64,000 bases of DNA from Odoribacter sp. AF15-53 (GTDB lineage: Bacteria; Bacteroidota; Bacteroidia; Bacteroidales; Marinifilaceae): the NCBI RefSeq assembly GCF_003479425.1, contig NZ_QUHC01000009.1, forward strand, positions 79,731-143,730, in the 5' to 3' direction. Position numbers and translations under genes: made by a program. The notes under the pieces are model-generated. The model did not search any database, was not told the DNA's origin, and was given only the letters and a program-made list of their open reading frames with translations. Of the stretch, positions 22,730 to 38,690 are shown one piece after another. Within the stretch, counting starts at the first letter, position 1. Every line of letters begins with the position of its first letter.

Positions 22730-23620
22730 ATGGAAGAAAATGTGATTGAGTGTAAAAACCTAACTCATTACTATGGTTCCCGATTGATCTATGAAAATTT
22801 GAATTTTTCAGTGAAGAAAGGGCATATCATGGGATTGTTGGGGAAAAATGGGTGTGGTAAAACAACCACGATTAATATTTTGAATGGTTTCCTTCAACCT
22901 CGTTCCGGAGAGTGTTTAATCTATGGGGAAAGTACACAGAATCTGAGTCCGGAAACTAAACGTCGTTTAGGCTACTTGATAGAAGGGCATATTCAGTATT
23001 CGTTTATGAATATCTATCAGATTGAGAAGTTTTATTCCGGTTTTTATAAAAATTGGAATCGAGATGCTTATTTCGAACTTATGAACCGGATGAAAATATT
23101 GCCTTCTCAGAAAGTATCAAGTATGTCTTGCGGGCAACGGGCTCAAGTTGCGTTGGGCTTAATTCTGGCTCAGGATCCTGATCTGTTGATTTTGGATGAT
23201 TTCTCGTTAGGACTGGATCCCGGTTATCGCCGTTTATTTGTTGATCACATGCGGGAGTATGCAAAATCCGGAAATAAAACCGTATTCTTGACCTCTCATA
23301 TTATTCAGGATATGGAACGTCTGATAGATGATGTTTTAATTATGGATTATAACCGGGTGTTGATGCGGGGATCTGCATCCGAATTTATGGAAAAATTTCA
23401 TCAGTTTACTTTTGATCTGGACAGGGATGATCTGGATTTTAAGTCAGACCCATTGATTGTTGAGGCAGATCGTATTAAAAATCACTATGAAATTTATACC
23501 TATGCTTCTGATAATGAAGTAAAGGCAATGTTAGAAACAAAAGGATTGGCGTATCGAAATTTTGCATCAGTAAAGATGACATTGGAAGATGCATTTATTG
23601 GTTTAACTGGAAAATATTAA
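22730..23620 (+). CDS. ABC transporter ATPase, cassette copy 1
   Basis: Cytoplasmic ATPase of 296 residues powering the membrane protein encoded next. Walker A GKNGCGKT (38-45, Lys44), signature MSCGQ (132-136, in place of LSGGQ), Walker B DLLILDD (151-157) and H-loop His190. The usual catalytic Glu after the Walker B Asp is Asp157, which normally slows hydrolysis. Residues 221-296 form a small C-terminal extension. Against the second copy (25551) I count five differences in the first 220 residues, whereas the codons differ at many silent sites. The resemblance is to BcrA/YtrB-type exporters; the substrate is unknown. Confidence 0.93.
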   Translation: MEENVIECKNLTHYYGSRLIYENLNFSVKKGHIMGLLGKNGCGKTTTINILNGFLQPRSGECLIYGESTQNLSPETKRRLGYLIEGHIQYSFMNIYQIEKFYSGFYKNWNRDAYFELMNRMKILPSQKVSSMSCGQRAQVALGLILAQDPDLLILDDFSLGLDPGYRRLFVDHMREYAKSGNKTVFLTSHIIQDMERLIDDVLIMDYNRVLMRGSASEFMEKFHQFTFDLDRDDLDFKSDPLIVEADRIKNHYEIYTYASDNEVKAMLETKGLAYRNFASVKMTLEDAFIGLTGKY

Positions 23621-23624
23621 AAAT

Positions 23625-24302
23625 ATGATATTACACCTTTTTTATAAGGAATGGCTAAAGACCCGTTGGGCGGCTTTTTTCGTTTCCCTTGTGGGTTTAG
23701 CGATAGTTGTCTACATATTTTTGGATGTGGATAACAATGTACGAATGAAAGGTTCATTCAATTATTTAATGAGTGTTTTTTATGGAATACCTCAGGCGAA
23801 CTATTATAATTCTCTGATTAAATATGTACCTCTGTTAATTGGGATTTGTATCGGTTTGTCACAATATGTGCCGGAAGTATTGGATAAACGAATCAAGTTG
23901 ACCCTCCATCTTCCTTTGCGTAACACGATAGCTTTGTATACGATGCTTTGCTACGGATTTCTTTTGTTAATCTTGTCATATGGTGTTGTGTTTGGGACAT
24001 TCTTTTATTTGAATAACAGCTATTTCCCATTCGAGGAAAGTTTGGCGGTACTTACTTCTATGATGCCTTGGCTTTTGGGCGGAATTGCAGCTTATTTCAT
24101 GATCGCCATGATTGCTATGGAACCTAATTTATTCTATCAATTTATTTATGCACTTGTGGCTTATTATCTAGTGAAGCAATTCTATATCGGAGTAGAACAT
24201 GCAGATACGCGCCATATTATTCCGGCCTTGGCCATCATGGCTTTTGTGCCGTGTACGGCATTATTGTATACATCATATCGGTTCATGAAAGGAGAGAGAT
24301 AA
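23625..24302 (+). CDS. ABC-2-like membrane protein, cassette copy 1
   Basis: Integral membrane protein of 225 residues with about six hydrophobic helices, starting 4 nt after the ATPase. It begins MILHLFYKEWLKTRW, an amphipathic entry helix typical of ABC-2 permeases. The cytoplasmic loop QYVPEVLDKRIKLTLHLPL is nearly unchanged in copy 2 and is a good candidate for the ATPase contact, because most of the rest has diverged. MIAMEPN is a second conserved patch. Likely the transmembrane half of an exporter or of a peptide-sensing or resistance complex. Confidence 0.85.
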   Translation: MILHLFYKEWLKTRWAAFFVSLVGLAIVVYIFLDVDNNVRMKGSFNYLMSVFYGIPQANYYNSLIKYVPLLIGICIGLSQYVPEVLDKRIKLTLHLPLRNTIALYTMLCYGFLLLILSYGVVFGTFFYLNNSYFPFEESLAVLTSMMPWLLGGIAAYFMIAMIAMEPNLFYQFIYALVAYYLVKQFYIGVEHADTRHIIPALAIMAFVPCTALLYTSYRFMKGER

Positions 24303-24304
24303 TT

Positions 24305-25534
24305 ATGACAGCAAAAGTAGTACGAATCATAATGATACTATTGACGGTTTTTATTGCGTCAATTGTTCTACCGGATTTTTATAAAACCTCGTTTAAACGG
24401 AATGTAAAATATGTCTCGTTGAATTATAGTGAGGTGACCAAACAGTTTGTGATATGGGGATTAAAAGATGGTGTCTTGTTAGATACTTTGGGGAATGAAT
24501 ATTCTCGTCAGGAATATGAACGGATGGTACCTTTCTCCAGTATGCCGCAATTACTAAAACGAAATGAATTTCCGGATACAGTGGCGGGAGTACCGGTGAC
24601 TCCTCAGCTTGTGGCAGAAAATAATTATCGGCATATCGTGAATTTAACAGAGCGGGGGCGGTATTACGCCATGTCTCCGCTTGTTCACGGGGGAACGGAT
24701 CGTGTCGGCTATATTTATACAAACGATATGATGCGGGTAAACCGGAATGGAATTGAATTTTATAATTGCGAGGATGGACGGGTTGATAAAGAAAAAAGTG
24801 CCCTTTTTGATCAAGAATTACGGAAATTGGGTTATTGTCCCCCGGCAAAAAAAATATATGGTCGATCTGCTACCGGGTATAAACGGGATGATGGTTTATT
24901 CTTTATAGATAGTAAAGACCAGTTGTTTCAAGTACGTTATCATGCTTACAAACCGGATTGTCGTAAAATCGAACTCCCCGATCAGATCAAATTGCGAAGA
25001 GTTGAATGGGAACCTGATCATCCGGAAGTTGTTGCCTATCTTTTTGGAGATAATAATGGTGTATATATCCTGACCGTGGACAATCAGATTATCAAACTGG
25101 ATCTGGATGAGTTTAACTATGACCAATTTAAAGTTTTTGACGTGATGGGTAATCTCTTCTATCACATGATCTCCATTCAGAAAGACGGTTACGAGAAACT
25201 ATATGTTTTTGATCGGAATTATAAATTATTGGATAAATACGGGGTGCATTCCGACGTGTATGAAGAATCGGCAGCGGGAGTGGTTGAAGGTTTTCTCTTC
25301 CCGTTTGTAACTTCCACCTACTCTTATATTAATGGATATTATATAAGTTCTGAGGGACAACCATTTGTGAAGTTCATTTGGTTAAATCTCGTGTTAGCTG
25401 GAGTTCTATTGTATATAAAACGACGTAAAGGCTTGAATGTGAAAAATCCGTTCCATATCATTGATCTATTCATGGTCGTGGCGTTTGGAGTCTTTGGATT
25501 TATAAGCGTGTTGATTTATCCGATTCGAAAATAA
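24305..25534 (+). CDS. DUF4857-like membrane-anchored protein, cassette copy 1
   Basis: Protein of 409 residues; ATG at 24305 is preferred over an in-frame ATG at 24251 that overlaps the permease. One N-terminal helix (IIMILLTVFIASIVLP) is followed by a large extracytoplasmic region of about 310 residues, then two C-terminal helices (about 355-400, ending GVFGFISVLIYPIRK). Such proteins sit beside this ABC pair in Bacteroidales and match what I recall as DUF4857; the function is not known to me. The soluble part has propeller-like strands (VYILTVDNQIIKLDLDEFNYDQF). The conserved end GFIxVLIxPxRK is shared with copy 2. It probably forms the outer part of the transporter complex. Confidence 0.75.
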   Translation: MTAKVVRIIMILLTVFIASIVLPDFYKTSFKRNVKYVSLNYSEVTKQFVIWGLKDGVLLDTLGNEYSRQEYERMVPFSSMPQLLKRNEFPDTVAGVPVTPQLVAENNYRHIVNLTERGRYYAMSPLVHGGTDRVGYIYTNDMMRVNRNGIEFYNCEDGRVDKEKSALFDQELRKLGYCPPAKKIYGRSATGYKRDDGLFFIDSKDQLFQVRYHAYKPDCRKIELPDQIKLRRVEWEPDHPEVVAYLFGDNNGVYILTVDNQIIKLDLDEFNYDQFKVFDVMGNLFYHMISIQKDGYEKLYVFDRNYKLLDKYGVHSDVYEESAAGVVEGFLFPFVTSTYSYINGYYISSEGQPFVKFIWLNLVLAGVLLYIKRRKGLNVKNPFHIIDLFMVVAFGVFGFISVLIYPIRK

Positions 25535-25550
25535 ATTAATCTAGACAACA

Positions 25551-26441
25551 ATGGAAGAAAATATAATAGAGTGTAAGAATCTGACCCATTATTATGGGAA
25601 ACGGTTAATCTATGAAAATCTCAACTTTTCTGTGAAGAAAGGGCACATCATGGGATTATTGGGGAAAAATGGATGTGGCAAAACGACCACGATTAATATA
25701 TTGAATGGTTTTCTGCAACCTCGTTCCGGAGAATGTTTGATCTATGGCGAATCAACCCAGAATTTGAGCCCGGAAACAAAACGGCGTTTAGGGTATTTGA
25801 TCGAGGGACATATTCAGTACTCGTTTATGAATATTTATCAGATCGAGAAATTTTATTCCGGTTTTTATAAAAACTGGAATCGGGATGCCTATTTTGATTT
25901 GATGAAAAGGATGAAAATACTTCCTTCTCAAAAAGTTTCCAGTATGTCATGCGGCCAGCGGGCTCAAGTGGCTTTAGGGCTGATTCTTGCTCAAGATCCT
26001 GATTTATTGATCTTGGATGACTTTTCTTTGGGATTGGACCCCGGCTATCGTCGCTTGTTCGTGGATCACATGCGTGAATATGCCAAGGCCGGAAATAAAA
26101 CCGTATTCTTGACCTCCCATATTATTCAGGATATGGAACGATTGATCGACGATGTGTTGATCATGGATTATAACCGGGTATTAATGCGGGGATCGGCATC
26201 CGAATTTATGGAAAAGTTCCACCAGTTTACATTTGATCTGAACCGGGATGATGTGAATCTTAAAGCAGAATCACTGACTGTTGAGATGGATCGAATTAAA
26301 AATCATTACGAACTTTACACGTATGCATCGGCAGAAGAAGTTCAGGCCATGTTGCAGGCAAAAGGGTTGGAATATTCTGATTTTAAACCTGTAAAGATGA
26401 CTTTAGAAGATGCTTTTATTGGTTTAACAGGTAAATATTAA
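25551..26441 (+). CDS. ABC transporter ATPase, cassette copy 2
   Basis: ATPase of 296 residues, near-identical to that at 22730 over residues 1-220 (differences at 5, 17, 116, 119 and 180). Walker A Lys44, signature MSCGQ, Walker B with Asp156-Asp157 and His190 are all conserved, including the Glu-to-Asp change. The last 75 residues diverge more. It starts 16 nt after the first cassette, so all six genes are probably one transcript. The two ATPases could form a heterodimer or be interchangeable between the two membrane partners. Confidence 0.93.
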   Translation: MEENIIECKNLTHYYGKRLIYENLNFSVKKGHIMGLLGKNGCGKTTTINILNGFLQPRSGECLIYGESTQNLSPETKRRLGYLIEGHIQYSFMNIYQIEKFYSGFYKNWNRDAYFDLMKRMKILPSQKVSSMSCGQRAQVALGLILAQDPDLLILDDFSLGLDPGYRRLFVDHMREYAKAGNKTVFLTSHIIQDMERLIDDVLIMDYNRVLMRGSASEFMEKFHQFTFDLNRDDVNLKAESLTVEMDRIKNHYELYTYASAEEVQAMLQAKGLEYSDFKPVKMTLEDAFIGLTGKY

Positions 26442-26445
26442 GATT

Positions 26446-27111
26446 ATGGCATTACATCTTTTTTATAAAGAATGGTTAAAAACGAAATGGTTTGTACTTG
26501 CTTCTCTGGTGTTGGGAGTGGGAACAATATTATATGCATTCATTGGCTTGAACAGCAATATTATAAATGCTGATGGGGGATCGAATTATGTTTTTGAATG
26601 GTTTACACAAGCCGGACGGCCGCATTATGGGATTTTCAAGAATATCCCTTTTATCATTGCCTTGTTGATTGGCGGATCGCAGTATTTGCCGGAGGTCTTG
26701 CAAAAAAAAATAAAATTGACCTTACACTTACCGTTAAATGAAATTGTGATGCTTTACACGATGGTTTTGTATGGATTTCTAATGATTCTTTCATTGATGG
26801 TTATCTTCATGATACTGTTTTTCACGATAGACCTTTATTTCTTCCCGGTGGAGATGCATATTATGGCTATAAATGCGTTCTTGCCTTGGATATTAGGCGG
26901 GTTCACGACTTATTTCTTCGTGGCAATGATTGCCATGGAACCCAGTTGGAAATTCCGGTGTTTATATGCGATCGTGGTGTATGAATTATTGGATATTTAC
27001 CTGTTGGGAGGTAATGTGTCGAATCTCTATGTACTAATGATTATAGTACTGGTCATCGCGAGTCTTGGAATGATATATACGGCTAATCGTTTTAAAATAG
27101 GAGAAAAATAA
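26446..27111 (+). CDS. ABC-2-like membrane protein, cassette copy 2
   Basis: Membrane protein of 221 residues with about six helices, 4 nt after its ATPase. It keeps the start (HLFYKEWLKTKW), the loop QYLPEVLQKKIKLTLHLPL and FFVAMIAMEPS of copy 1 but differs across most helices. This is the expected pattern if the ATPase contact is fixed while the transported substrate, or sensed ligand, differs. Confidence 0.85.
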   Translation: MALHLFYKEWLKTKWFVLASLVLGVGTILYAFIGLNSNIINADGGSNYVFEWFTQAGRPHYGIFKNIPFIIALLIGGSQYLPEVLQKKIKLTLHLPLNEIVMLYTMVLYGFLMILSLMVIFMILFFTIDLYFFPVEMHIMAINAFLPWILGGFTTYFFVAMIAMEPSWKFRCLYAIVVYELLDIYLLGGNVSNLYVLMIIVLVIASLGMIYTANRFKIGEK

Positions 27112-27112
27112 T

Positions 27113-28366
27113 ATGATACCAAAGATGATAAGATTAGCTCTAGTGCTATTGGCTGTATTGGTAATGGCGTTGGAGTTCCCTAAAATATATAAGAAAACAT
27201 TCGAACAAAGGGAAAGACGTACTCAGCTCGTATTTAGCGAAATGTTGAATGATTTTGTTACCTTGAAATATGAATATGACACGGTGCAGTTACGTGAAAT
27301 TCAGGTCGGAAGAGATCGGGCAGGGAATACATATGACACGAAAGCGTTGATGGATATATTCCCGATGAGAAATTGTCGGCAATTAATGTACGAGAATCGG
27401 TTTCCTGACACGATTCGTGGGCAACACGTGACATTACAGATGATACAGGATGCGGCACGTTTCCCCTTGTTCCTTGGGGCAGGCCCCGGACGAAAATCTT
27501 TATTGTGGATGTTCGAATCCCATACAGATCAGATAAAAATGGAACTTCCGGAAGATATGTTTCGCCTAACGGATGAGGGAATTGAGTTTATTGAAACGGA
27601 TATTAACCGGGTTAAAGGCGTGAATAAGGAAAAGAGTGAGCGTTTTACCCAGGCCATGAAGAATGAGGGAATACAATTTCCGATAAAGAACATTTATGGA
27701 CTTCCTTCCACCTCCAAATCAAAGGATGATGGCTATTTTATGGTGGACAATAAAGATGATTTCTTTCATTTAAAAATGTATGATGGAGAACCTCAATGCC
27801 ATAAAATTCCTCTTCCAGTCGGTATGCAGGTAAATGGAATGAATTGTCTGGTGGATGATGTAAATTATGGATACGTGTACGATCAGAACTATAACATCTA
27901 TTTGATGCGTATCAAAGATTATAGTTTTTTCCAGCTCCCGATATATGACTACAAGGACTATGGAAGTCTGATTACGATGAGTGAAGATCTTTTCTTCTAT
28001 ACCTATCAATTGTATGGTTTGGATCGTGTCAAGATTTACGTGGTGGATAAGGAACATAATTTACTAGCTTCCGAGACGCTGGTTTATCCTCTTTATGAAA
28101 ATTCGAAAGTGGGACAGAGAGAGAATTATGTATTCCCTTTTAAAGCTCGTTTCACCCGTGATGGAGCCAAAAAGTTGAAAGTGGAGGCTTATGACATGCA
28201 ACGGTTTATTTACTTGAATATAGCGTTAACATTGTTATTGCTCTGTATCAAATTGTATCATAGACGGAGTATGCGGAATCTGTTTAATTATTTGGATTTG
28301 GTCGTGACATTGGCATGTGGTATATATGGCTTTATTGCCGTGCTTATTTTCCCGAACCGTAAATAA
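27113..28366 (+). CDS. DUF4857-like membrane-anchored protein, cassette copy 2
   Basis: Protein of 417 residues, 1 nt after the permease stop. Same plan as the copy at 24305: one N-terminal helix (LALVLLAVLVMALEFP), a large soluble domain, then paired C-terminal helices ending GFIAVLIFPNRK. Shared motifs include NRFPDT, VTLQMI, KEKSERFT and IYGLPSTSKSKDDGYFMVDNKD. The soluble domain is considerably diverged from copy 1, suggesting a different ligand or substrate. Role unknown. Confidence 0.75.
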   Translation: MIPKMIRLALVLLAVLVMALEFPKIYKKTFEQRERRTQLVFSEMLNDFVTLKYEYDTVQLREIQVGRDRAGNTYDTKALMDIFPMRNCRQLMYENRFPDTIRGQHVTLQMIQDAARFPLFLGAGPGRKSLLWMFESHTDQIKMELPEDMFRLTDEGIEFIETDINRVKGVNKEKSERFTQAMKNEGIQFPIKNIYGLPSTSKSKDDGYFMVDNKDDFFHLKMYDGEPQCHKIPLPVGMQVNGMNCLVDDVNYGYVYDQNYNIYLMRIKDYSFFQLPIYDYKDYGSLITMSEDLFFYTYQLYGLDRVKIYVVDKEHNLLASETLVYPLYENSKVGQRENYVFPFKARFTRDGAKKLKVEAYDMQRFIYLNIALTLLLLCIKLYHRRSMRNLFNYLDLVVTLACGIYGFIAVLIFPNRK

Positions 28367-29492: not shown

Positions 29493-30989
29493 TTATTCGA
29501 AGTTAGCGAACTCCCCTTGTTTCAAAAATTCAACGGCAGCCTCGATGTCCTGGTACATCACCCGGTCTTGGCTGTTGAATGGTACGATCGTGCGGAATTC
29601 GGCCAAGAAGTTTTCCAAATATGCTGATGTTTTCGTCGGCCGTTGCATATCAATGGCTTGTGCGGCATTCATTAATTCGATAGCCAGCACTCTTTCCACG
29701 TTCTCGATCACTTTCACTGTTTTGGTTGCGGCGTTACCACCCATGCTGACATGATCCTCCTGCTCGTTGGATGACGGGATGGAGTCCACGGAACACGGAG
29801 AGCACAACTGCTTGTTCTTGCTGACGATAGCAGCAGCGGCGTATTGCGGGATCATGAAACCGGAATTCAAGCCGGAATTGGCAACGAGGAATTCAGGAGT
29901 TTTACGATCTCCGGCAATCAAACGGTATACCCGTCTTTCAGAGATGCTACCCAATTCGGAGATAGCGATGCTCAAGAAATCTAATACCAGAGCTAGCGGT
30001 TCGCCGTGGAAGTTACCACCGGAAATAATCAAATCATCTTCCATGAAAATAGTCGGGTTGTCGGTTACCGAGTTGATTTCCCGTTCAACGACAGATGCCA
30101 CGTAAGCCACGGTATCTTTCACAGCCCCGTGTACTTGAGGCATACAACGGAAAGAGTACGGGTCTTGCACGTGAGTCTTTTCCATTTTCTGGAATTCTGA
30201 ACCTTCCAGTAAGGTGCGGATATTACGAGCCGTTTCAATTTGTCCCGGATGAGGACGAGCTTCGTGGATTTGCGGTAAAAACGGATCAATGCGTCCGTCG
30301 TATGCTTCCAGTGATAAAGCCCCGATAATATCAGCATATTTTACCACTTTGAAGGCATTCAATAAAGCGTAAACAGCGTGAGAACTCATGAATTGAGTAC
30401 CATTCAACAAAGCCAATCCTTCTTTAGCTCCCAGTTGGATGGGTTCCCAGCCGAATTTGGCATTAATTTCTTTTGCCGGATAGATTTTATCCTTGTAGAA
30501 TACCTCTCCCTCACCGATCAATGGCAAGAACAAGTTTGCCAACGGGGCCAAGTCCCCGGATGCGCCCAAAGAGCCTAATTCTTTTACCACGGGAAGAACG
30601 TCATGGTTGAACATATCGATAATACGTTCCACGGTCACTTGTTGTACCCCGGATTTTCCCAAAGAAAGAGCGTGAGCTTTGAGCAACAACATCAAACGGA
30701 TAATATCTTTGTGTACGGGTTCTCCCAAGCTACAAGCGTGAGACATGACCAGATTAGCTTGTAACTGGCTTAAATCTTCTTGTGAGATGGAAATCTTACA
30801 CAAAGAACCGAACCCGGTTGTGATTCCATACAAAGGCTTGTCAGAAGTTGCGATTTTATGATCCAAGTAAGCCTTGCAATCATTGATCAGTTTCTTGCTC
30901 TCGTCTGATAAAGCTAATTTATACTTCTTAGTTAAAATTTTTTCGATCTGCTCGAAAGTTAATTTCTCTGGGGTTATATAATGAGTCAT
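29493..30989 (-). CDS. hutH: Histidine ammonia-lyase
   Basis: Cytoplasmic enzyme of 498 residues that deaminates L-histidine to trans-urocanate, the first step of histidine breakdown. The Ala143-Ser144-Gly145 triad in GSLGASGDLAPLA forms the MIO electrophile. Other family marks are the N-terminal YGITTGFG (54-61), the DNPT segment after SVVEREINSVT, and the EQEDHVSMG region. Length is normal. No hutU, hutI or ftcD lies in this window, so the rest of the pathway must be elsewhere. It lies 188 nt downstream of hisS on the same strand. The leader is A/T-rich with a duplicated 14-bp unit and no Shine-Dalgarno. Confidence 0.97.
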   Translation of the reverse strand: MTHYITPEKLTFEQIEKILTKKYKLALSDESKKLINDCKAYLDHKIATSDKPLYGITTGFGSLCKISISQEDLSQLQANLVMSHACSLGEPVHKDIIRLMLLLKAHALSLGKSGVQQVTVERIIDMFNHDVLPVVKELGSLGASGDLAPLANLFLPLIGEGEVFYKDKIYPAKEINAKFGWEPIQLGAKEGLALLNGTQFMSSHAVYALLNAFKVVKYADIIGALSLEAYDGRIDPFLPQIHEARPHPGQIETARNIRTLLEGSEFQKMEKTHVQDPYSFRCMPQVHGAVKDTVAYVASVVEREINSVTDNPTIFMEDDLIISGGNFHGEPLALVLDFLSIAISELGSISERRVYRLIAGDRKTPEFLVANSGLNSGFMIPQYAAAAIVSKNKQLCSPCSVDSIPSSNEQEDHVSMGGNAATKTVKVIENVERVLAIELMNAAQAIDMQRPTKTSAYLENFLAEFRTIVPFNSQDRVMYQDIEAAVEFLKQGEFANFE

Positions 30990-30992
30990 TGG

Positions 30993-31020
30993 ATTTTAGA
31001 TTTTAAATTTTAGATTTTAA
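30993..31020. repeat. Perfect 14-bp tandem duplication in the hutH leader
   Basis: ATTTTAGATTTTAA occurs twice in a row (30993-31006, 31007-31020) immediately upstream of the hutH start codon. On the coding strand this gives an A-rich leader (AATCTAAAAT units). A similar AAATCTAAAATCT leader precedes the response regulator at 2195. It probably serves translation initiation without a Shine-Dalgarno. Confidence 0.7.
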
Positions 31021-31177
31021 ATTGCATACACACGAGTGAGGCTTTTGCCTTGCGAGTTTGTAAGGTTCAACTTTATGAATCTTACAAATTTTATAAACCA
31101 CTTCCCGGTCACGGGAATCTAACATCAAATCCGTGGCTTTTCAGCGGGCGTTGTTCTTTGCGGTATAGTTGCATACT

Positions 31178-33242: not shown

Positions 33243-35570
33243 ATGAATTTGAGTGTACTGTTATTATGTTTGAGTGCAGTGTTTCCCGGAAAGGATGGAA
33301 AAAAGAATCCTGCAGATTACGTTAATCCTTTTATTGGAACAAAGAGCATGGGACACACGTTTCCTGGGGCCTGCGTGCCGTTTGGGGCTGTTCAATTGAG
33401 CCCTGATACAGAGAATGTTCCGCATAACATTGATGGCGTTTATCAAAAAGAGGCTTATCGTTATTGTGCTGGATACCAGTATGATGATCCAACAATTATT
33501 GGGTTTAGCCACACGCATTTGAGTGGAACCGGACATTCGGATTTAGGGGATATTCTTTTAATGCCAACGGTTGGGGATTTGAAATTGGTACCTGGTACAG
33601 CAGAAAAGCCAGAAGAAGGGTATCGTTCTCGTTTTTCACATGAAATGGAAAAAGCTTCGCCCGGATACTATGAAGTGAAGTTGCAAGATTACAATGTAAA
33701 AGTGCAGTTGACGGCAACGGAACGTGTTGGTGTACATAAATATACCTATCCGATGGGAACAAAAGAGGGGCATGTGATTGTGGATTTATTACATGGTATA
33801 TACAATTATGATGGCAAGGTGCTTTGGGCCAATTTGAGGGTGGAGAATGATACTTTGTTGACCGGTTATCGAATAACCCGGGGGTGGGCAAGAACGAATT
33901 ACACGTATTTTGTTATAACCTTTTCCAAACCGATTCGAAATTACGGGCATGAGAACTTTGAGGATGTAAAATATCAAGGTTTTTGGAGACGTTTTAATGT
34001 GAAAGATAATTTTCCGGAAATGGGAGGCCGTGGAATTGTGGCGTTCTTTGATTTTGATTTAGCGGAAGATCCGGAATTGGAAGTGAAAGTGGCTCTTTCG
34101 TGTGTGAGTACGGAGGGTGCTTTAAAAAACCTGGAGGTAGAAACGTCTGGAAAGAATTTTGATGTACTTGTTGCAGAGGCAAAAGACAAATGGAATAAAG
34201 AATTGTCAGTAATTGAGGCGCAAGGAAATGATAATCAATTGGCGATGTTGTATACGTCATTGTATCACACGATGATAAACCCTTCTGTTTACATGGATGT
34301 GGATGGTCGCTACCGGGGCGTGGATCATATGATTCATCAAGCGGATGGTTTTACAAATTATACGGTATTCTCATTGTGGGATACATTTCGTGCCTTACAC
34401 CCGTTGTTTAATGTGCTGAACCGAGATCGGAATCAAGATATGGTGAAATCCATGTTGGAACATTACCAACAGAGTGTGCATAAAGCTTTGCCTGTCTGGT
34501 CGCATATGGGAAATGAGAATTGGTGTATGATTGCTTATCATGGTGTTGCGGTGGTTGCTGATGCTTTGGCAAAAGGAATAGATGTGGATAATGCGTTGGC
34601 TTTGGAGGCTATGAGAAATAGTGCGAATGTGTTGTATTATCAAGATACTAAAGATTACGTGGAGAAAGGATATGTGCCTGTTGATAAGGATGGTAGTGGA
34701 GCATCAATTACCTTGGAAAATGCTTATGACGATTGGACCATTTATCAGACGGCCAAAAGGCTTGGAAAACAAAAAGTGATGGTAGAATACGAGAAACGGG
34801 CATTGAATTATCGGAATTTATTTGACGAACGTTTGGGATTTGTACATCCTCGTTTATCTGATGGAAGTTGGAAGGAGCCGTTTGATCCGTTGAATACACA
34901 CGGGGAAGGGTTTATCGAAGGAAATTCATGGAACTATTCATTTCATGTCCCGCATGATGTGAATGGTTTGATTCACCAAATGGGAGGAGAGAAGCGCTTT
35001 ACAGAGAGGTTGGATAGCTTGTTCACGATGCTCCTTCCTGAGAAGTATTATGCTGATACCGAAGATATAACGGAGGAAGGATTGATGGGAAATTATGTCC
35101 ATGGTAATGAACCGAGCCACCATGTGTTATATTTATATGCGTGGACCTCTCAACCGTGGAAAACCCAGTATCGAGTTCGAGAGGTGATGAATCGTATGTA
35201 TCGGAACAAAATTGACGGATTGTGTGGAAATGATGATTGTGGGCAAATGTCTGCTTGGTATATATTTTCAGCTTTAGGCTTTTATCCCGTATGTCCCGGA
35301 ACAGATCAATACGTGTTGGGTGCCCCTTACCTGCCTTACATGAAAGTGCGTTTAGAAAACGGAAATTTGTTTGAGGTGCGTGCCGCGAAGGTAAGCGATA
35401 AGAATCGTTATGTGAAGTCTGTAAAATTGAATGGGAAACCCTACGAGAAGGCCTATATTACGCAACAAGATATTCAAGCCGGTGGAGTGTTGGAATTTGA
35501 AATGGATAGCAAGCCTAATCGTAACAGGATTTATAAAGAAGATAACAAACCTTATTCTTTGACACGATGA
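33243..35570 (+). CDS. GH92 family glycosidase (probable alpha-mannosidase), first copy
   Basis: Glycoside hydrolase of 775 residues; known family members are calcium-dependent exo-alpha-mannosidases releasing mannose from N-glycans or mannans. The N-terminal sandwich starts DYVNPFIGTKSMGHTFPGA. The catalytic (alpha/alpha)6 barrel has ENWCMIAYHGVAVVAD, Glu559 in FIEGNSWNYSF (general acid position) and Asp664/Asp665 in CGNDDCGQMSAWYIF (base position). The signal peptide is short (MNLSVLLLCLSAVF) and lacks a basic start, so export is likely but less clear. It heads locus B and overlaps the metallopeptidase gene by 4 nt (ATGA), so both are translated together. Confidence 0.93.
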   Translation: MNLSVLLLCLSAVFPGKDGKKNPADYVNPFIGTKSMGHTFPGACVPFGAVQLSPDTENVPHNIDGVYQKEAYRYCAGYQYDDPTIIGFSHTHLSGTGHSDLGDILLMPTVGDLKLVPGTAEKPEEGYRSRFSHEMEKASPGYYEVKLQDYNVKVQLTATERVGVHKYTYPMGTKEGHVIVDLLHGIYNYDGKVLWANLRVENDTLLTGYRITRGWARTNYTYFVITFSKPIRNYGHENFEDVKYQGFWRRFNVKDNFPEMGGRGIVAFFDFDLAEDPELEVKVALSCVSTEGALKNLEVETSGKNFDVLVAEAKDKWNKELSVIEAQGNDNQLAMLYTSLYHTMINPSVYMDVDGRYRGVDHMIHQADGFTNYTVFSLWDTFRALHPLFNVLNRDRNQDMVKSMLEHYQQSVHKALPVWSHMGNENWCMIAYHGVAVVADALAKGIDVDNALALEAMRNSANVLYYQDTKDYVEKGYVPVDKDGSGASITLENAYDDWTIYQTAKRLGKQKVMVEYEKRALNYRNLFDERLGFVHPRLSDGSWKEPFDPLNTHGEGFIEGNSWNYSFHVPHDVNGLIHQMGGEKRFTERLDSLFTMLLPEKYYADTEDITEEGLMGNYVHGNEPSHHVLYLYAWTSQPWKTQYRVREVMNRMYRNKIDGLCGNDDCGQMSAWYIFSALGFYPVCPGTDQYVLGAPYLPYMKVRLENGNLFEVRAAKVSDKNRYVKSVKLNGKPYEKAYITQQDIQAGGVLEFEMDSKPNRNRIYKEDNKPYSLTR

Positions 35571-36340
35571 ACGAGAAAATAATAGTATGGTTATGTGTTT
35601 TGGGAATCATGTATTCCTGTGGTTCTCATAAAGGAAAGCGAGTAGAAGGAAACCCTTGGTCTAGTTATGACGTGGGACGAGTTGAATTTAAAAATCTTTC
35701 TCCGGAAACAGATGGAGCAAAATTGTATGCGAAAATTGTATCGAATCCGGAACAATTTATTCAAGAGTGTGCGAGACAAGTGTTGAATACATTGTATTTT
35801 TCGCCGAAAGACAGTATTCCTAAAATAGAATTAATAACCTATATATTGAAATCGTATAATGGAATATCTGAAAAAAGCGGGACCCCTCCGGCAATAACAA
35901 TTGCTTACAGTACGGATTGGATTGAAAAGAGTTATAAGGATGATATGGAGGCATTGATTTTAGAAAATCGAGGAGTACTTTGGCATGAATTGACTCATGG
36001 TTTTCAATTGGAGCCTCAAGGTATTGGAACTTATGGTACAAACAAAACGTTCTGGGCTTTTATAGAAGGGATGGCTGATGCCGTTCGTTATGTGAATGGA
36101 GGGTTTACTTTAGCAGATAGACCGAAAGGTGGACATTATATGGATGGCTATCGTACCACAGGTTTTTTCTTGGCGTGGTTGATGCAAACGAAAGATTCGG
36201 ATTTCTTGCGTAAATTCAATAATAGTACGTTGCATGTTATTCCATGGTCATTTAAAGAGGCAATCCGCTATTCTCTGGGGGAAGAGTATGATATAGACAC
36301 GTTATGGGAAGAGTATTTGGTTGCTATGGGAGATAAGTAA
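35567..36340 (+). CDS. Basic secretory protein-type zinc metallopeptidase, lipoprotein
   Basis: Lipoprotein of 257 residues (lipobox LGIMYSC). A zinc-binding HELTH motif (His140-Glu141-Leu-Thr-His144) followed by GFQLEP and by AFIEGMADAVRYVNG matches the basic secretory protein family of putative peptidases, whose third ligand lies in the EGxAD segment. The middle part (SPKDSIPKIELITYILKSYNGISEK, ITIAYSTDWIEK) is also family-typical. It is expected on the outer membrane, where it could cut protein carrying the glycans trimmed by its GH92 neighbours. Translationally coupled to the first GH92. Confidence 0.85.
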   Translation: MNEKIIVWLCVLGIMYSCGSHKGKRVEGNPWSSYDVGRVEFKNLSPETDGAKLYAKIVSNPEQFIQECARQVLNTLYFSPKDSIPKIELITYILKSYNGISEKSGTPPAITIAYSTDWIEKSYKDDMEALILENRGVLWHELTHGFQLEPQGIGTYGTNKTFWAFIEGMADAVRYVNGGFTLADRPKGGHYMDGYRTTGFFLAWLMQTKDSDFLRKFNNSTLHVIPWSFKEAIRYSLGEEYDIDTLWEEYLVAMGDK

Positions 36341-36413
36341 ATTTTTATTTTGAACGGAATTGAAAACGTAAAATTGTAATTTGATAGATAATGAAACATC
36401 ATGTATTAGTTGT

Positions 36414-38690
36414 ATGTGTTTTTGTGTTTTTGTGTTTTTGTGTCTCGTGGCAGGATATCCTGCACGAGCACAATCTCTTTTTGAGCCGGAGGAGTATGTT
36501 AACCCGTTGATGGGAACAGAATCTTCGTTCGAATTGTCGACAGGAAATACTTATCCGGCAATAGCTCGTCCGTGGGGGATGAATTTTTGGATGCCACAAA
36601 CAGGTAAGATGGGAGACGGTTGGGCCTACGTGTACACGGCAAATAAAATACGTGGTTTTAAACAAACACACCAGCCGAGTCCGTGGATTAATGACTATGG
36701 TCAGTTTTCATTGATGCCTGTTGTTGGACATCCTGAATTTGATCAAGACAAGCGAGCCAGTTGGTTTTCTCACAAAGGAGAGCTTGCCAAACCTTATTAT
36801 TATAAAGTTTATTTGGCCGATTATGATGTGGTTACGGAGTTTACAACGACCGAACGGGCGGCTCTTTTTTGTTTTACGTTTCCAGAGAGCGATCGCTCTT
36901 ACGTGGTTGTGGATGCTTTTGATAGAGGGTCGTTCGTGAAGATTGTAGGCAATAATCGGATTGAAGGCTACACGACTCGAAATAGTGGAGGAGTTCCTGG
37001 TAATTTTAAAAATTATTTTGTTATAGAATTTGATAAACCTTTTGATTACAAACACACTTTTGCTGACGGGAAATTAAGCGATGATTTGGAGCAACTGTCT
37101 CAACATGTTGGAGGTGTAATCGGATTTCGTACAAAGAAAGGTGAAAAAGTACATGCTCGAGTGGCCTCCTCTTTTATTAGTTTGGAACAAGCGGAACGTA
37201 ATTTGAAAGAATTGGGAAACGATGATTTTCAAACGTTAGTTGCTAAAGGGAAGAAAGAATGGAACCGTGTGTTGAGTGTCATACAAGTGGAAGGAGGTAC
37301 TCTAGATCAGTATCGGGTATTCTATTCTTGTTTATATCGATCTGTACTCTTCCCTCGGAAATTTTATGAATTGGATGCTGACGGTAATGTCATGCACTAC
37401 AGTCCTCATAATGGTCAAGTGCTACCCGGATATTTCTATACGGATACCGGTTTTTGGGATACATTCCGTTGTTTGTTTCCCCTATTGAATTTGGTCTACC
37501 CGTCCCAGAATAAAGAGATGCAGGAGGGGTTGATTAATACGTATAAAGAGAGCGGCTTCTTTCCGGAATGGGCGAGTCCTGGTCACCGGGGATGCATGGT
37601 GGGTAATAATTCGGCCTCAGTTCTAGTGGATGCCTATTTGAAAGGAGTCCGTGTGGACGACGTGGAGACCTTGTTCGAAGGGTTGTTACATGGCACGAAT
37701 CACGTACATCCAAAAGCATCTTCAACGGGTCGTTTGGGATATGAATATTATAACCGTTTAGGATATGTACCTTACAATGTGGGTATTAATGAAAGTGCCG
37801 CTCGAACGTTAGAGTATGCCTACGATGATTGGTGTATTTATCGCTTGGCGAAAGAGTTGGGACGTCCGGAGAAGGAAATGAAACTTTTTGCAGAACGGGC
37901 AATGAATTATAAAAATTTGTTCGATCCTGAAACCAAATTGATGCGAGGGAAAAATCAAGATGGTACGTTCATGGCACCTTTCTCTCCGTTAAAGTGGGGT
38001 GATGCTTTTACAGAGGGGAATAGTTGGCATTATACGTGGTCGGTATTCCACGATCCTCAAGGATTGATTGACCTGATGGGGGGAAAAGAGATTTTTGTTC
38101 AAATGTTGGATTCTGTATTTGCCGTACCACCCTTGTTTGATGAAAGCTATTATGGAGGAGTGATTCATGAAATTCGTGAAATGACGGTGATGAATATGGG
38201 AAACTATGCTCACGGGAACCAGCCGATACAGCATATGATCTATTTGTATAATTATGCGAGGCAACCATGGAAAGCTCAATACTGGCTTCGTGAGGTGATG
38301 AATCGGATGTACACTCCGGGACCGGATGGTTATTGCGGGGATGAGGATAATGGGCAAACATCTGCTTGGTATGTATTCTCTGCTATGGGTTTTTATCCCG
38401 TTTGTCCGGGGACAGATCAATATGTGTTGGGAACACCACTTTTCCCGAAAGTGACACTTTCATTAGAGAATGGAAAAGAGGTGGTGATTTCTGCACCTCG
38501 GGTAAGCGACACATATCGTTACGTGGATCAAATTAAATTGAATGGTCGAAAATACACGAAAAACTATCTTACACATAAAGATTTGCTGCGAGGTGGTCGA
38601 CTTGACATACAGATGAGCGATCAACCCAATAAACAACGAGGAACAAGAGATGATGATCTTCCGTATTCTTTTTCTTTAGAGAGAGAATAG
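36414..38690 (+). CDS. GH92 family glycosidase (probable alpha-mannosidase), second copy, with repeat tract in signal peptide
   Basis: Enzyme of 758 residues if started at the ATG at 36414. Family marks include EYVNPLMGTESSF, FTEGNSWHYTW (acid) and CGDEDNGQTSAWYVF (base), all intact. The start is uncertain. The best signal peptide start, ATG 36391 (MKHHVLVV...), is out of frame. The in-frame choices are ATG 36414, which gives MCFCVFVFLCLVAGYPARAQ without basic residues, or a TTG at 36381. Three perfect TGTTTTTG units (36417-36440) lie just after the ATG; losing one unit would put ATG 36391 in frame. So the gene may be phase-variable, or simply mutated. It differs clearly from the first GH92, so linkage specificity may differ too. 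Confidence 0.88.
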   Translation: MCFCVFVFLCLVAGYPARAQSLFEPEEYVNPLMGTESSFELSTGNTYPAIARPWGMNFWMPQTGKMGDGWAYVYTANKIRGFKQTHQPSPWINDYGQFSLMPVVGHPEFDQDKRASWFSHKGELAKPYYYKVYLADYDVVTEFTTTERAALFCFTFPESDRSYVVVDAFDRGSFVKIVGNNRIEGYTTRNSGGVPGNFKNYFVIEFDKPFDYKHTFADGKLSDDLEQLSQHVGGVIGFRTKKGEKVHARVASSFISLEQAERNLKELGNDDFQTLVAKGKKEWNRVLSVIQVEGGTLDQYRVFYSCLYRSVLFPRKFYELDADGNVMHYSPHNGQVLPGYFYTDTGFWDTFRCLFPLLNLVYPSQNKEMQEGLINTYKESGFFPEWASPGHRGCMVGNNSASVLVDAYLKGVRVDDVETLFEGLLHGTNHVHPKASSTGRLGYEYYNRLGYVPYNVGINESAARTLEYAYDDWCIYRLAKELGRPEKEMKLFAERAMNYKNLFDPETKLMRGKNQDGTFMAPFSPLKWGDAFTEGNSWHYTWSVFHDPQGLIDLMGGKEIFVQMLDSVFAVPPLFDESYYGGVIHEIREMTVMNMGNYAHGNQPIQHMIYLYNYARQPWKAQYWLREVMNRMYTPGPDGYCGDEDNGQTSAWYVFSAMGFYPVCPGTDQYVLGTPLFPKVTLSLENGKEVVISAPRVSDTYRYVDQIKLNGRKYTKNYLTHKDLLRGGRLDIQMSDQPNKQRGTRDDDLPYSFSLERE
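36417..36440 (+). repeat. 8-bp simple sequence repeat, TGTTTTTG x3
   Basis: Three perfect units plus a partial fourth (TGT) inside signal-peptide codons of the second GH92. The unit length is not a multiple of three, so each gain or loss changes the frame. Confidence 0.9.

What the first reader, a model, noticed from the sequence alone, without database searches (positions are those of the whole stretch)
36391..36470. 8-bp repeat tract places the second GH92 under possible phase variation of its start and signal peptide
Seen: three perfect TGTTTTTG units at 36417-36440. ATG 36391 begins a textbook signal peptide (MKHHVLVVCVFVFLC) but is out of frame with the enzyme. Removing one 8-bp unit joins it to LVAGYPARAQ and the mature GH92. 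With three units the enzyme can start only from ATG 36414 (no basic residues) or a TTG. Known: short tandem repeats with unit lengths not divisible by three cause phase variation by slippage. Inferred: surface display of this mannosidase could switch on and off, or move between two start codons, with repeat number.
Basis: partly seen in the sequence, partly recalled or inferred. Interest (0 to 1): 0.75.

Follow-up and report, generated by a model that had tools for sequence, protein, structure and literature searches.

The report
Mutable 8-base repeat in mannosidase gene
A sugar-cutting enzyme gene of a gut bacterium carries a short 8-base repeat inside its export signal, apparently one copy longer than in its closest known relative, so that the usual start no longer fits and a second start must be used; copying slips could switch this back, but no switching has been seen.

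Summary
Three perfect TGTTTTTG units (36417-36440; 29 bp, 3.6 copies at 36415-36443) lie in the signal-peptide codons of a GH92 gene of a Butyricimonas-like genome. It is the window's only exact tandem tract of period 4-12 with 2.5 or more copies; 0 of 200 shuffles gave one as long. With three units ATG 36391 is out of frame. The closest listed protein, P0002 (97% identical), begins MKHRVLVVCVFVFLCLVAGYPARAQ: the two-unit reading from ATG 36391 with one residue changed. So the in-frame form exists in nature. Three units put ATG 36414 in frame; its start context scores above 79% of 422 presumed starts, but it lacks a basic n-region. Four units would leave only TTG/GTG starts. The enzyme body shows no excess of changes, so the gene is not decaying. 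Best reading: a low-copy, slippage-prone tract that gained a unit and moved the start. An evolved phase-variation switch is possible but unshown: one other allele was seen, as a peptide; no strain DNA or reads were available. 'Surface display' is not supported; the signal looks like signal peptidase I type (inspection).

The parts
36415..36443 (+). 8-bp tandem tract, 3.6 copies (three perfect TGTTTTTG units at 36417-36440)
36391..36510 (+). 39-codon reading frame from ATG 36391 (signal-peptide start), out of frame with the enzyme in this sequence, with its stop
36414..38690 (+). GH92 enzyme, 758 aa from ATG 36414
   Evidence: Pfam PF17678 and PF07971; start score
36381..36413 (+). upstream part of the same frame, from the alternative start TTG 36381
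36341..36390 (+). 50-nt A/T-rich gap between the peptidase gene and ATG 36391
35567..36340 (+). PF04450 (BSP) peptidase-like gene, upstream neighbour kept in two related genomes
33243..35570 (+). first GH92 gene of the same gene row

Best explanation
The tract grew out of T-rich signal-peptide codons (V-C-V-F-V-F-L-C) and gained one 8-bp unit by replication slippage in this lineage. The likely ancestral design starts at ATG 36391 and makes a signal peptide of about 24 residues with a basic start. With the extra unit that start leads only to a 39-codon dead end, and the enzyme must be made from ATG 36414, with a shorter leader lacking the basic n-region, or from TTG 36381. Loss or gain of units at a low, unmeasured rate would move the gene between the two ATGs or to no ATG. 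Shown: the tract, the frames, a close relative with the two-unit type peptide, an intact enzyme body. Inferred: slippage as the cause, gain here rather than loss elsewhere, use of ATG 36414, altered export, reversibility. This is a mutable tract, not a demonstrated switch.
For: P0002 has the two-unit type peptide apart from H4R. Several Butyricimonas relatives start with a basic residue at the homologous place (P0007 MKCQVLIVC, P0076 MRYYVCVLV), and the DNA of two related genomes has an imperfect T-rich version (L086; L088; alignment). Start-context score of ATG 36414 is 7.44, above 79% of 422 presumed starts and reached by 0.2% of 4780 internal ATGs. Of 24 differences between the window protein and P0002, 9 fall on the window side (7 without residues 1 and 3, which differ because of the frame), 8 on the P0002 side, 7 unclear. 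In 800 kb of two related genomes no tract of this kind lies in a gene, so nothing points to a genus-wide set of coding repeat switches.
Against: The tract is far beyond shuffle expectation and sits where frame changes swap two well-placed ATGs, which would also fit a selected switch. The predicted fold around ATG 36414 (-10.3 kcal/mol) is stronger than the mean of 200 sampled starts (-5.6, sd 3.1), and ribosomes from ATG 36391 would cross it. Only 4 of 108 signal-like leaders lack K/R before the hydrophobic stretch, this one included. The unit number of P0002 is read from its peptide only.
Confidence: 0.6

Rival explanations
1. Evolved phase variation: the tract is a contingency locus that switches the enzyme between start ATG 36391 (basic signal peptide), start ATG 36414 (short leader) and off, at a rate high enough to keep mixed populations.
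For: Non-triplet tract at the 5' end with start codons in different frames, the layout described as an exception with graded expression in passages of PMC4235727; excess over shuffles; a two-unit type peptide in a close relative; both ATGs have good start contexts.
Against: Only three units; no strain or within-clone variation seen; no coding tract of this kind in the 800 kb sampled from two related genomes; relatives lack the perfect tract. The review lists 3 or more copies of one 5-bp unit as hypermutable but 3-12 copies of one 4-bp unit as only mutable, so the rate cannot be placed.
Confidence: 0.2
2. The third unit is a sequencing or assembly error and the real sequence has two units.
For: The closest relative reads as two units; the source and quality of the window's assembly are unknown.
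Against: The array is 29 bp, shorter than ordinary reads, and gain of an exact 8-bp unit is not a usual error (inference). The ORFs that I checked elsewhere in the window, 19 of the 43 listed, gave no pair that looks like one split gene (inspection only).
Confidence: 0.12
3. Recoding: ribosomes or RNA polymerase slip on the T5 runs, so that ATG 36391 still makes enzyme from the three-unit gene.
For: Three T5 runs inside the tract; a shift of minus one base would restore the frame (arithmetic).
Against: By inspection no perfect slippery heptamer lies in the frame of ATG 36391, and T5 is short for polymerase slippage (recalled knowledge). Not tested by any search.
Confidence: 0.04

Closest known systems
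SSR-mediated translational phase variation (contingency loci, for example in Haemophilus and Neisseria), including loci with several start codons in different frames upstream of the repeat
   Same: Non-triplet tandem unit at the 5' end of a gene; unit number decides which start is in frame (passages of PMC4235727).
   Different: Few units (3), 8-bp unit, inside signal-peptide codons, in a gut Bacteroidales glycosidase; no strain or within-clone variation measured.
Octanucleotide SSRs counted in the Haemophilus influenzae survey PMC2651432
   Same: Reaches that survey's threshold of 3 uninterrupted octamer units (passages).
   Different: In the Table 3 passage the octamer counts are 1, 0, 1 and 1 in four genomes with 0 in brackets each time; I read the brackets as the number inside ORFs (the legend was cut). 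This tract is inside a coding region.
GH92 enzymes of Butyricimonas (P0007 Butyricimonas virosa, P0076 Butyricimonas synergistica)
   Different: The signal-peptide DNA seen in those two genomes (L086, L088) has no perfect repeat and its start is in frame.
Invertible-promoter phase variation in gut Bacteroidales
   Same: Same order of bacteria; affects surface and glycan functions.
   Different: Works by DNA inversion, not slippage (passages of PMC12632263); inversion was not looked for at this place.

Membership tests
SSR-mediated translational phase variation | uninterrupted tandem tract of a non-triplet unit near the 5' end of a coding sequence | tested here: met
   period 8, 3.6 copies, starting 24 bases after the A of ATG 36391
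SSR-mediated translational phase variation | repeat number at or above a published SSR threshold (3 for octamers) | tested here: met
   (PMC2651432 passages): met at the lowest value only
SSR-mediated translational phase variation | unit number changes which start is in frame with the protein | tested here: met
   frame arithmetic for 1-7 units
SSR-mediated translational phase variation | unit number differs between strains | tested here: inconclusive
   one relative (P0002, 97% aa identity, not shown to be the same species) reads as two units at peptide level; its DNA and the other members of its cluster of 31 were not seen
SSR-mediated translational phase variation | unit number varies within one clone at a raised rate | not testable with these tools
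   no reads available
SSR-mediated translational phase variation | expression or phenotype switches with unit number | not testable with these tools
   needs bench work
Glycoside hydrolase family 92 | GH92 N-terminal and catalytic Pfam domains | tested here: met
   PF17678 E 1.8e-66, PF07971 E 9.8e-175
Glycoside hydrolase family 92 | catalytic residues and alpha-mannosidase activity | not tested
   active-site residues were not mapped and no assay exists

The most novel reading that the evidence does not exclude
A three-state slippage switch in a gut Bacteroidales: an octamer tract inside the signal peptide toggles an exported mannosidase between two start codons with different export signals and an off state, so that unit number sets how much enzyme leaves the cytoplasm.
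Probability: 0.18. Interest if true: 0.65.

Novelty: new member of a known kind. Interest (0 to 1): 0.38.

Why it matters
In the review passages seen here (PMC12632263), phase variation in gut Bacteroidales is told as DNA inversion. A coding repeat that swaps two starts and two export signals would add slippage to that list and tie it to glycan foraging. If it is only a mutable tract, it is still a clean example of a signal-peptide frameshift with a second start ready in the new frame, and a caution for gene callers. The prediction is cheap to check by counting units in existing metagenome reads.

Tried and rejected
Looked for the same species to count units: no whole genome is held for the window. 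A DNA search of the 56 genomes of one family found matches in 38, with a best identity of 78% among the long matches, so no same-species DNA. A viral-contig scan with a pattern covering two units found 0 stretches.

Looked for the same tract elsewhere: TGTTTTTGTGTTTTTG occurs 3 times in 2 of 56 family genomes, all three in one identical stretch unrelated to GH92. The reversed control pattern hit once, in G043, so three hits are not much above chance.

Rejected: internal ATG 36510 as main start (score -7.36); decay of the gene (no excess of changes); surface lipoprotein (no lipobox by inspection). Weakened, not settled: 'no basic residues means no export'. The counter-examples are GH92_1 and P0094/P0095, but GH92_1 is not among the signal-like leaders by my own rule, and its orthologues in G014 and G012 begin MK.

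Limits of my own tests: start scores use presumed starts (first ATG of ORFs of at least 250 aa; the ATG 36414 ORF itself is among the 422). The count of 4 of 108 signal-like leaders (of 422 proteins) without K/R uses a crude hydrophobicity and cleavage-motif rule. One search aligned 21 of the 120 listed proteins (P0001 and P0003, those under 750 aa and near-identical ones dropped; P0002 was the compared row) and 27 of the 80 loci L001-L080 (the rest failed an ORF filter). Six of those 27 turned out to be another GH92 paralogue, so the conservation figures printed are blurred. In one search one relative (L088) was missed by my motif; one search found it.

Literature: 8 searches. In the listings shown I saw no paper on slippage phase variation in Butyricimonas or other gut Bacteroidales. 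The library holds open-licence papers only, several lists were cut (15 shown of 29, 306 and 13,557), and one search was too broad to settle it. Seen as passages only: PMC2651432, PMC12632263, PMC4235727. PMC3116884 was searched for start-codon terms with no hit. All other papers were seen as search listings only.

Full report
What is there. The tract is real: three perfect TGTTTTTG units at 36417-36440 within a 29-bp, 3.6-copy period-8 array at 36415-36443. It lies in the first codons of a GH92 gene (PF17678 and PF07971), the third gene of a row GH92 (33243-35570), PF04450 peptidase (35567-36340), GH92 (to 38690). The genus is inferred: named hits next to P0002 are Butyricimonas.

Is it chance? 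In the window it is the only exact tandem array of period 4-12 with at least 2.5 copies. 200 dinucleotide shuffles gave none with at least 3 copies and 24 bp. In 800 kb sampled from G014 and G012 there were seven such arrays, all with 7-bp units, lying between the main reading frames. So the tract is unusual both against shuffles and against real related sequence. Part of the excess comes from repeated V/F/C/L codons of a hydrophobic stretch, and relatives show an imperfect T-rich version (L086; L088; alignment).

Which frame is original? The closest listed protein, P0002 (763 aa, 97% identical), begins MKHRVLVVCVFVFLCLVAGYPARAQ. Apart from H4R this is what ATG 36391 would give with two units (frame arithmetic). 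Butyricimonas virosa-type proteins (P0007, MKCQVLIVCVLIFLWLGAGIPARAQ) and Butyricimonas synergistica-type proteins (P0076, MRYYVCVLVCLWLGVGIPAQAQ) have a similar layout; P0094 and P0095 do not (MNLCVFLL). So the in-frame form with a basic n-region is probably ancestral, and the window carries one unit more. P0002 is the only one of 120 listed proteins above 90% identity. Its cluster holds 31 members, of which only the representative could be seen, and its unit number is inferred from the peptide.

What the extra unit does. From ATG 36391 the present sequence gives 39 codons and stops at TGA 36508-36510. The enzyme frame can start at ATG 36414 or TTG 36381. A start-context score built from 422 presumed starts against 4780 internal ATGs gives 5.22 for ATG 36391, 7.44 for ATG 36414, 4.24 for TTG 36381 and -7.36 for the internal ATG 36510. 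ATG 36414 therefore looks usable, although the predicted RNA fold there is stronger than average (-10.3 against a mean of -5.6, sd 3.1, for 200 sampled starts). Its product MCFCVFVFLCLVAGYPARAQ keeps a hydrophobic core and a signal peptidase I-like end (inspection) but no basic residue before the core; 4 of 108 signal-like leaders in the sample share that, this one included. The neighbour GH92 (MNLSVLLLCLSAVFPGKDGKK) and P0094/P0095 also lack a basic residue there. But the neighbour is not signal-like by my rule, and its orthologues in G014 and G012 begin MK. So a K/R-free leader occurs but is not the rule, and its function is untested.

Is the gene decaying? Of 24 differences between the window and P0002, 9 were assigned to the window side (7 without residues 1 and 3, which differ because of the frame), 8 to P0002 and 7 were unclear. 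One window change, G616R, hits a site that is G in 41 of 48 aligned relatives, N in 6 (the other GH92 paralogue) and K in 1. This is no sign of general decay; the single change at a conserved site is noted against that.

How it most likely works. A short mutable octamer array in signal-peptide codons gained a unit by slippage and moved translation to a second, well-placed ATG. Unit numbers 2/5, 3/6 and 1/4/7 would give ATG 36391, ATG 36414 and no ATG. That is the logic of known SSR loci with several starts in different frames, as described in a passage of PMC4235727. The same review says the rate is proportional to repeat number; its table lists 3 or more copies of one 5-bp unit as hypermutable but 3-12 copies of one 4-bp unit as only mutable, so three octamers cannot be placed with confidence. 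A Haemophilus survey took three octamers as its threshold (PMC2651432 passages). Whether this tract switches at a useful rate, and whether the cell profits, is untested.

What could not be done. No reads, no same-species genome and no metagenome scan were available, so strain variation at DNA level is unknown.

Verdict. Interest is moderate.

Noticed in passing
window 30992-31023; L131 11680-11711, L139 3937-3962 and 8981-9019, L140 4136-4166, L141 15348-15379, L144 9826-9850, L150 1246-1276: Related genomes carry many arrays of 7-bp A/T-rich units (AATTGAA, GATTTTA, AAATCTA, GATTTAT) between genes, often touching a start codon: 5 of the 7 exact arrays in 800 kb lie within about 15 nt upstream of a presumed start and 2 of 7 directly after a stop. 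Three AATTGAA units match 16-64 times (overlaps counted) in each of G009-G014 and 0-4 times in each of the other 50 family genomes; the reversed control pattern matched 0 times in all 56. The window has a similar array 3 nt before the aromatic amino acid lyase gene (30989..29493, minus strand). Role unknown.
   Followed up: partly
P0061, P0083, P0105, P0106, P0107 (one search hits): A few Butyricimonas virosa-like GH92 proteins have changed N-termini: P0061 looks frame-changed inside the signal peptide, and P0105-P0107 are listed from the internal MGTQSTYEL. Signal-peptide changes or gene-caller artefacts occur there too; their DNA was not seen.
   Followed up: partly
window 36508-36512: The stop of the 39-codon ORF from ATG 36391 overlaps an in-frame ATG of the enzyme (TGATG), which could allow re-initiation of a leaderless enzyme; its start-context score is poor.
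   Followed up: partly
window 22730-28366: Two successive copies of a three-gene set: ABC ATPase, a protein without a Pfam match, and a DUF4857 protein, probably a tandem duplication.
   Followed up: no
window 33243: The first GH92 gene has an N-terminus without a basic residue (MNLSVLLLC), while its orthologues in two related genomes have MKLSVLLLC and MKLNVLLLC; so both GH92 leaders of this gene row lack a basic start in this sequence.
   Followed up: partly
L114, L115, L116: TGTTTTTGTGTTTTTG occurs in one identical stretch found twice in G009 and once in G019, perhaps a mobile or repeated element shared by two genomes.
   Followed up: no
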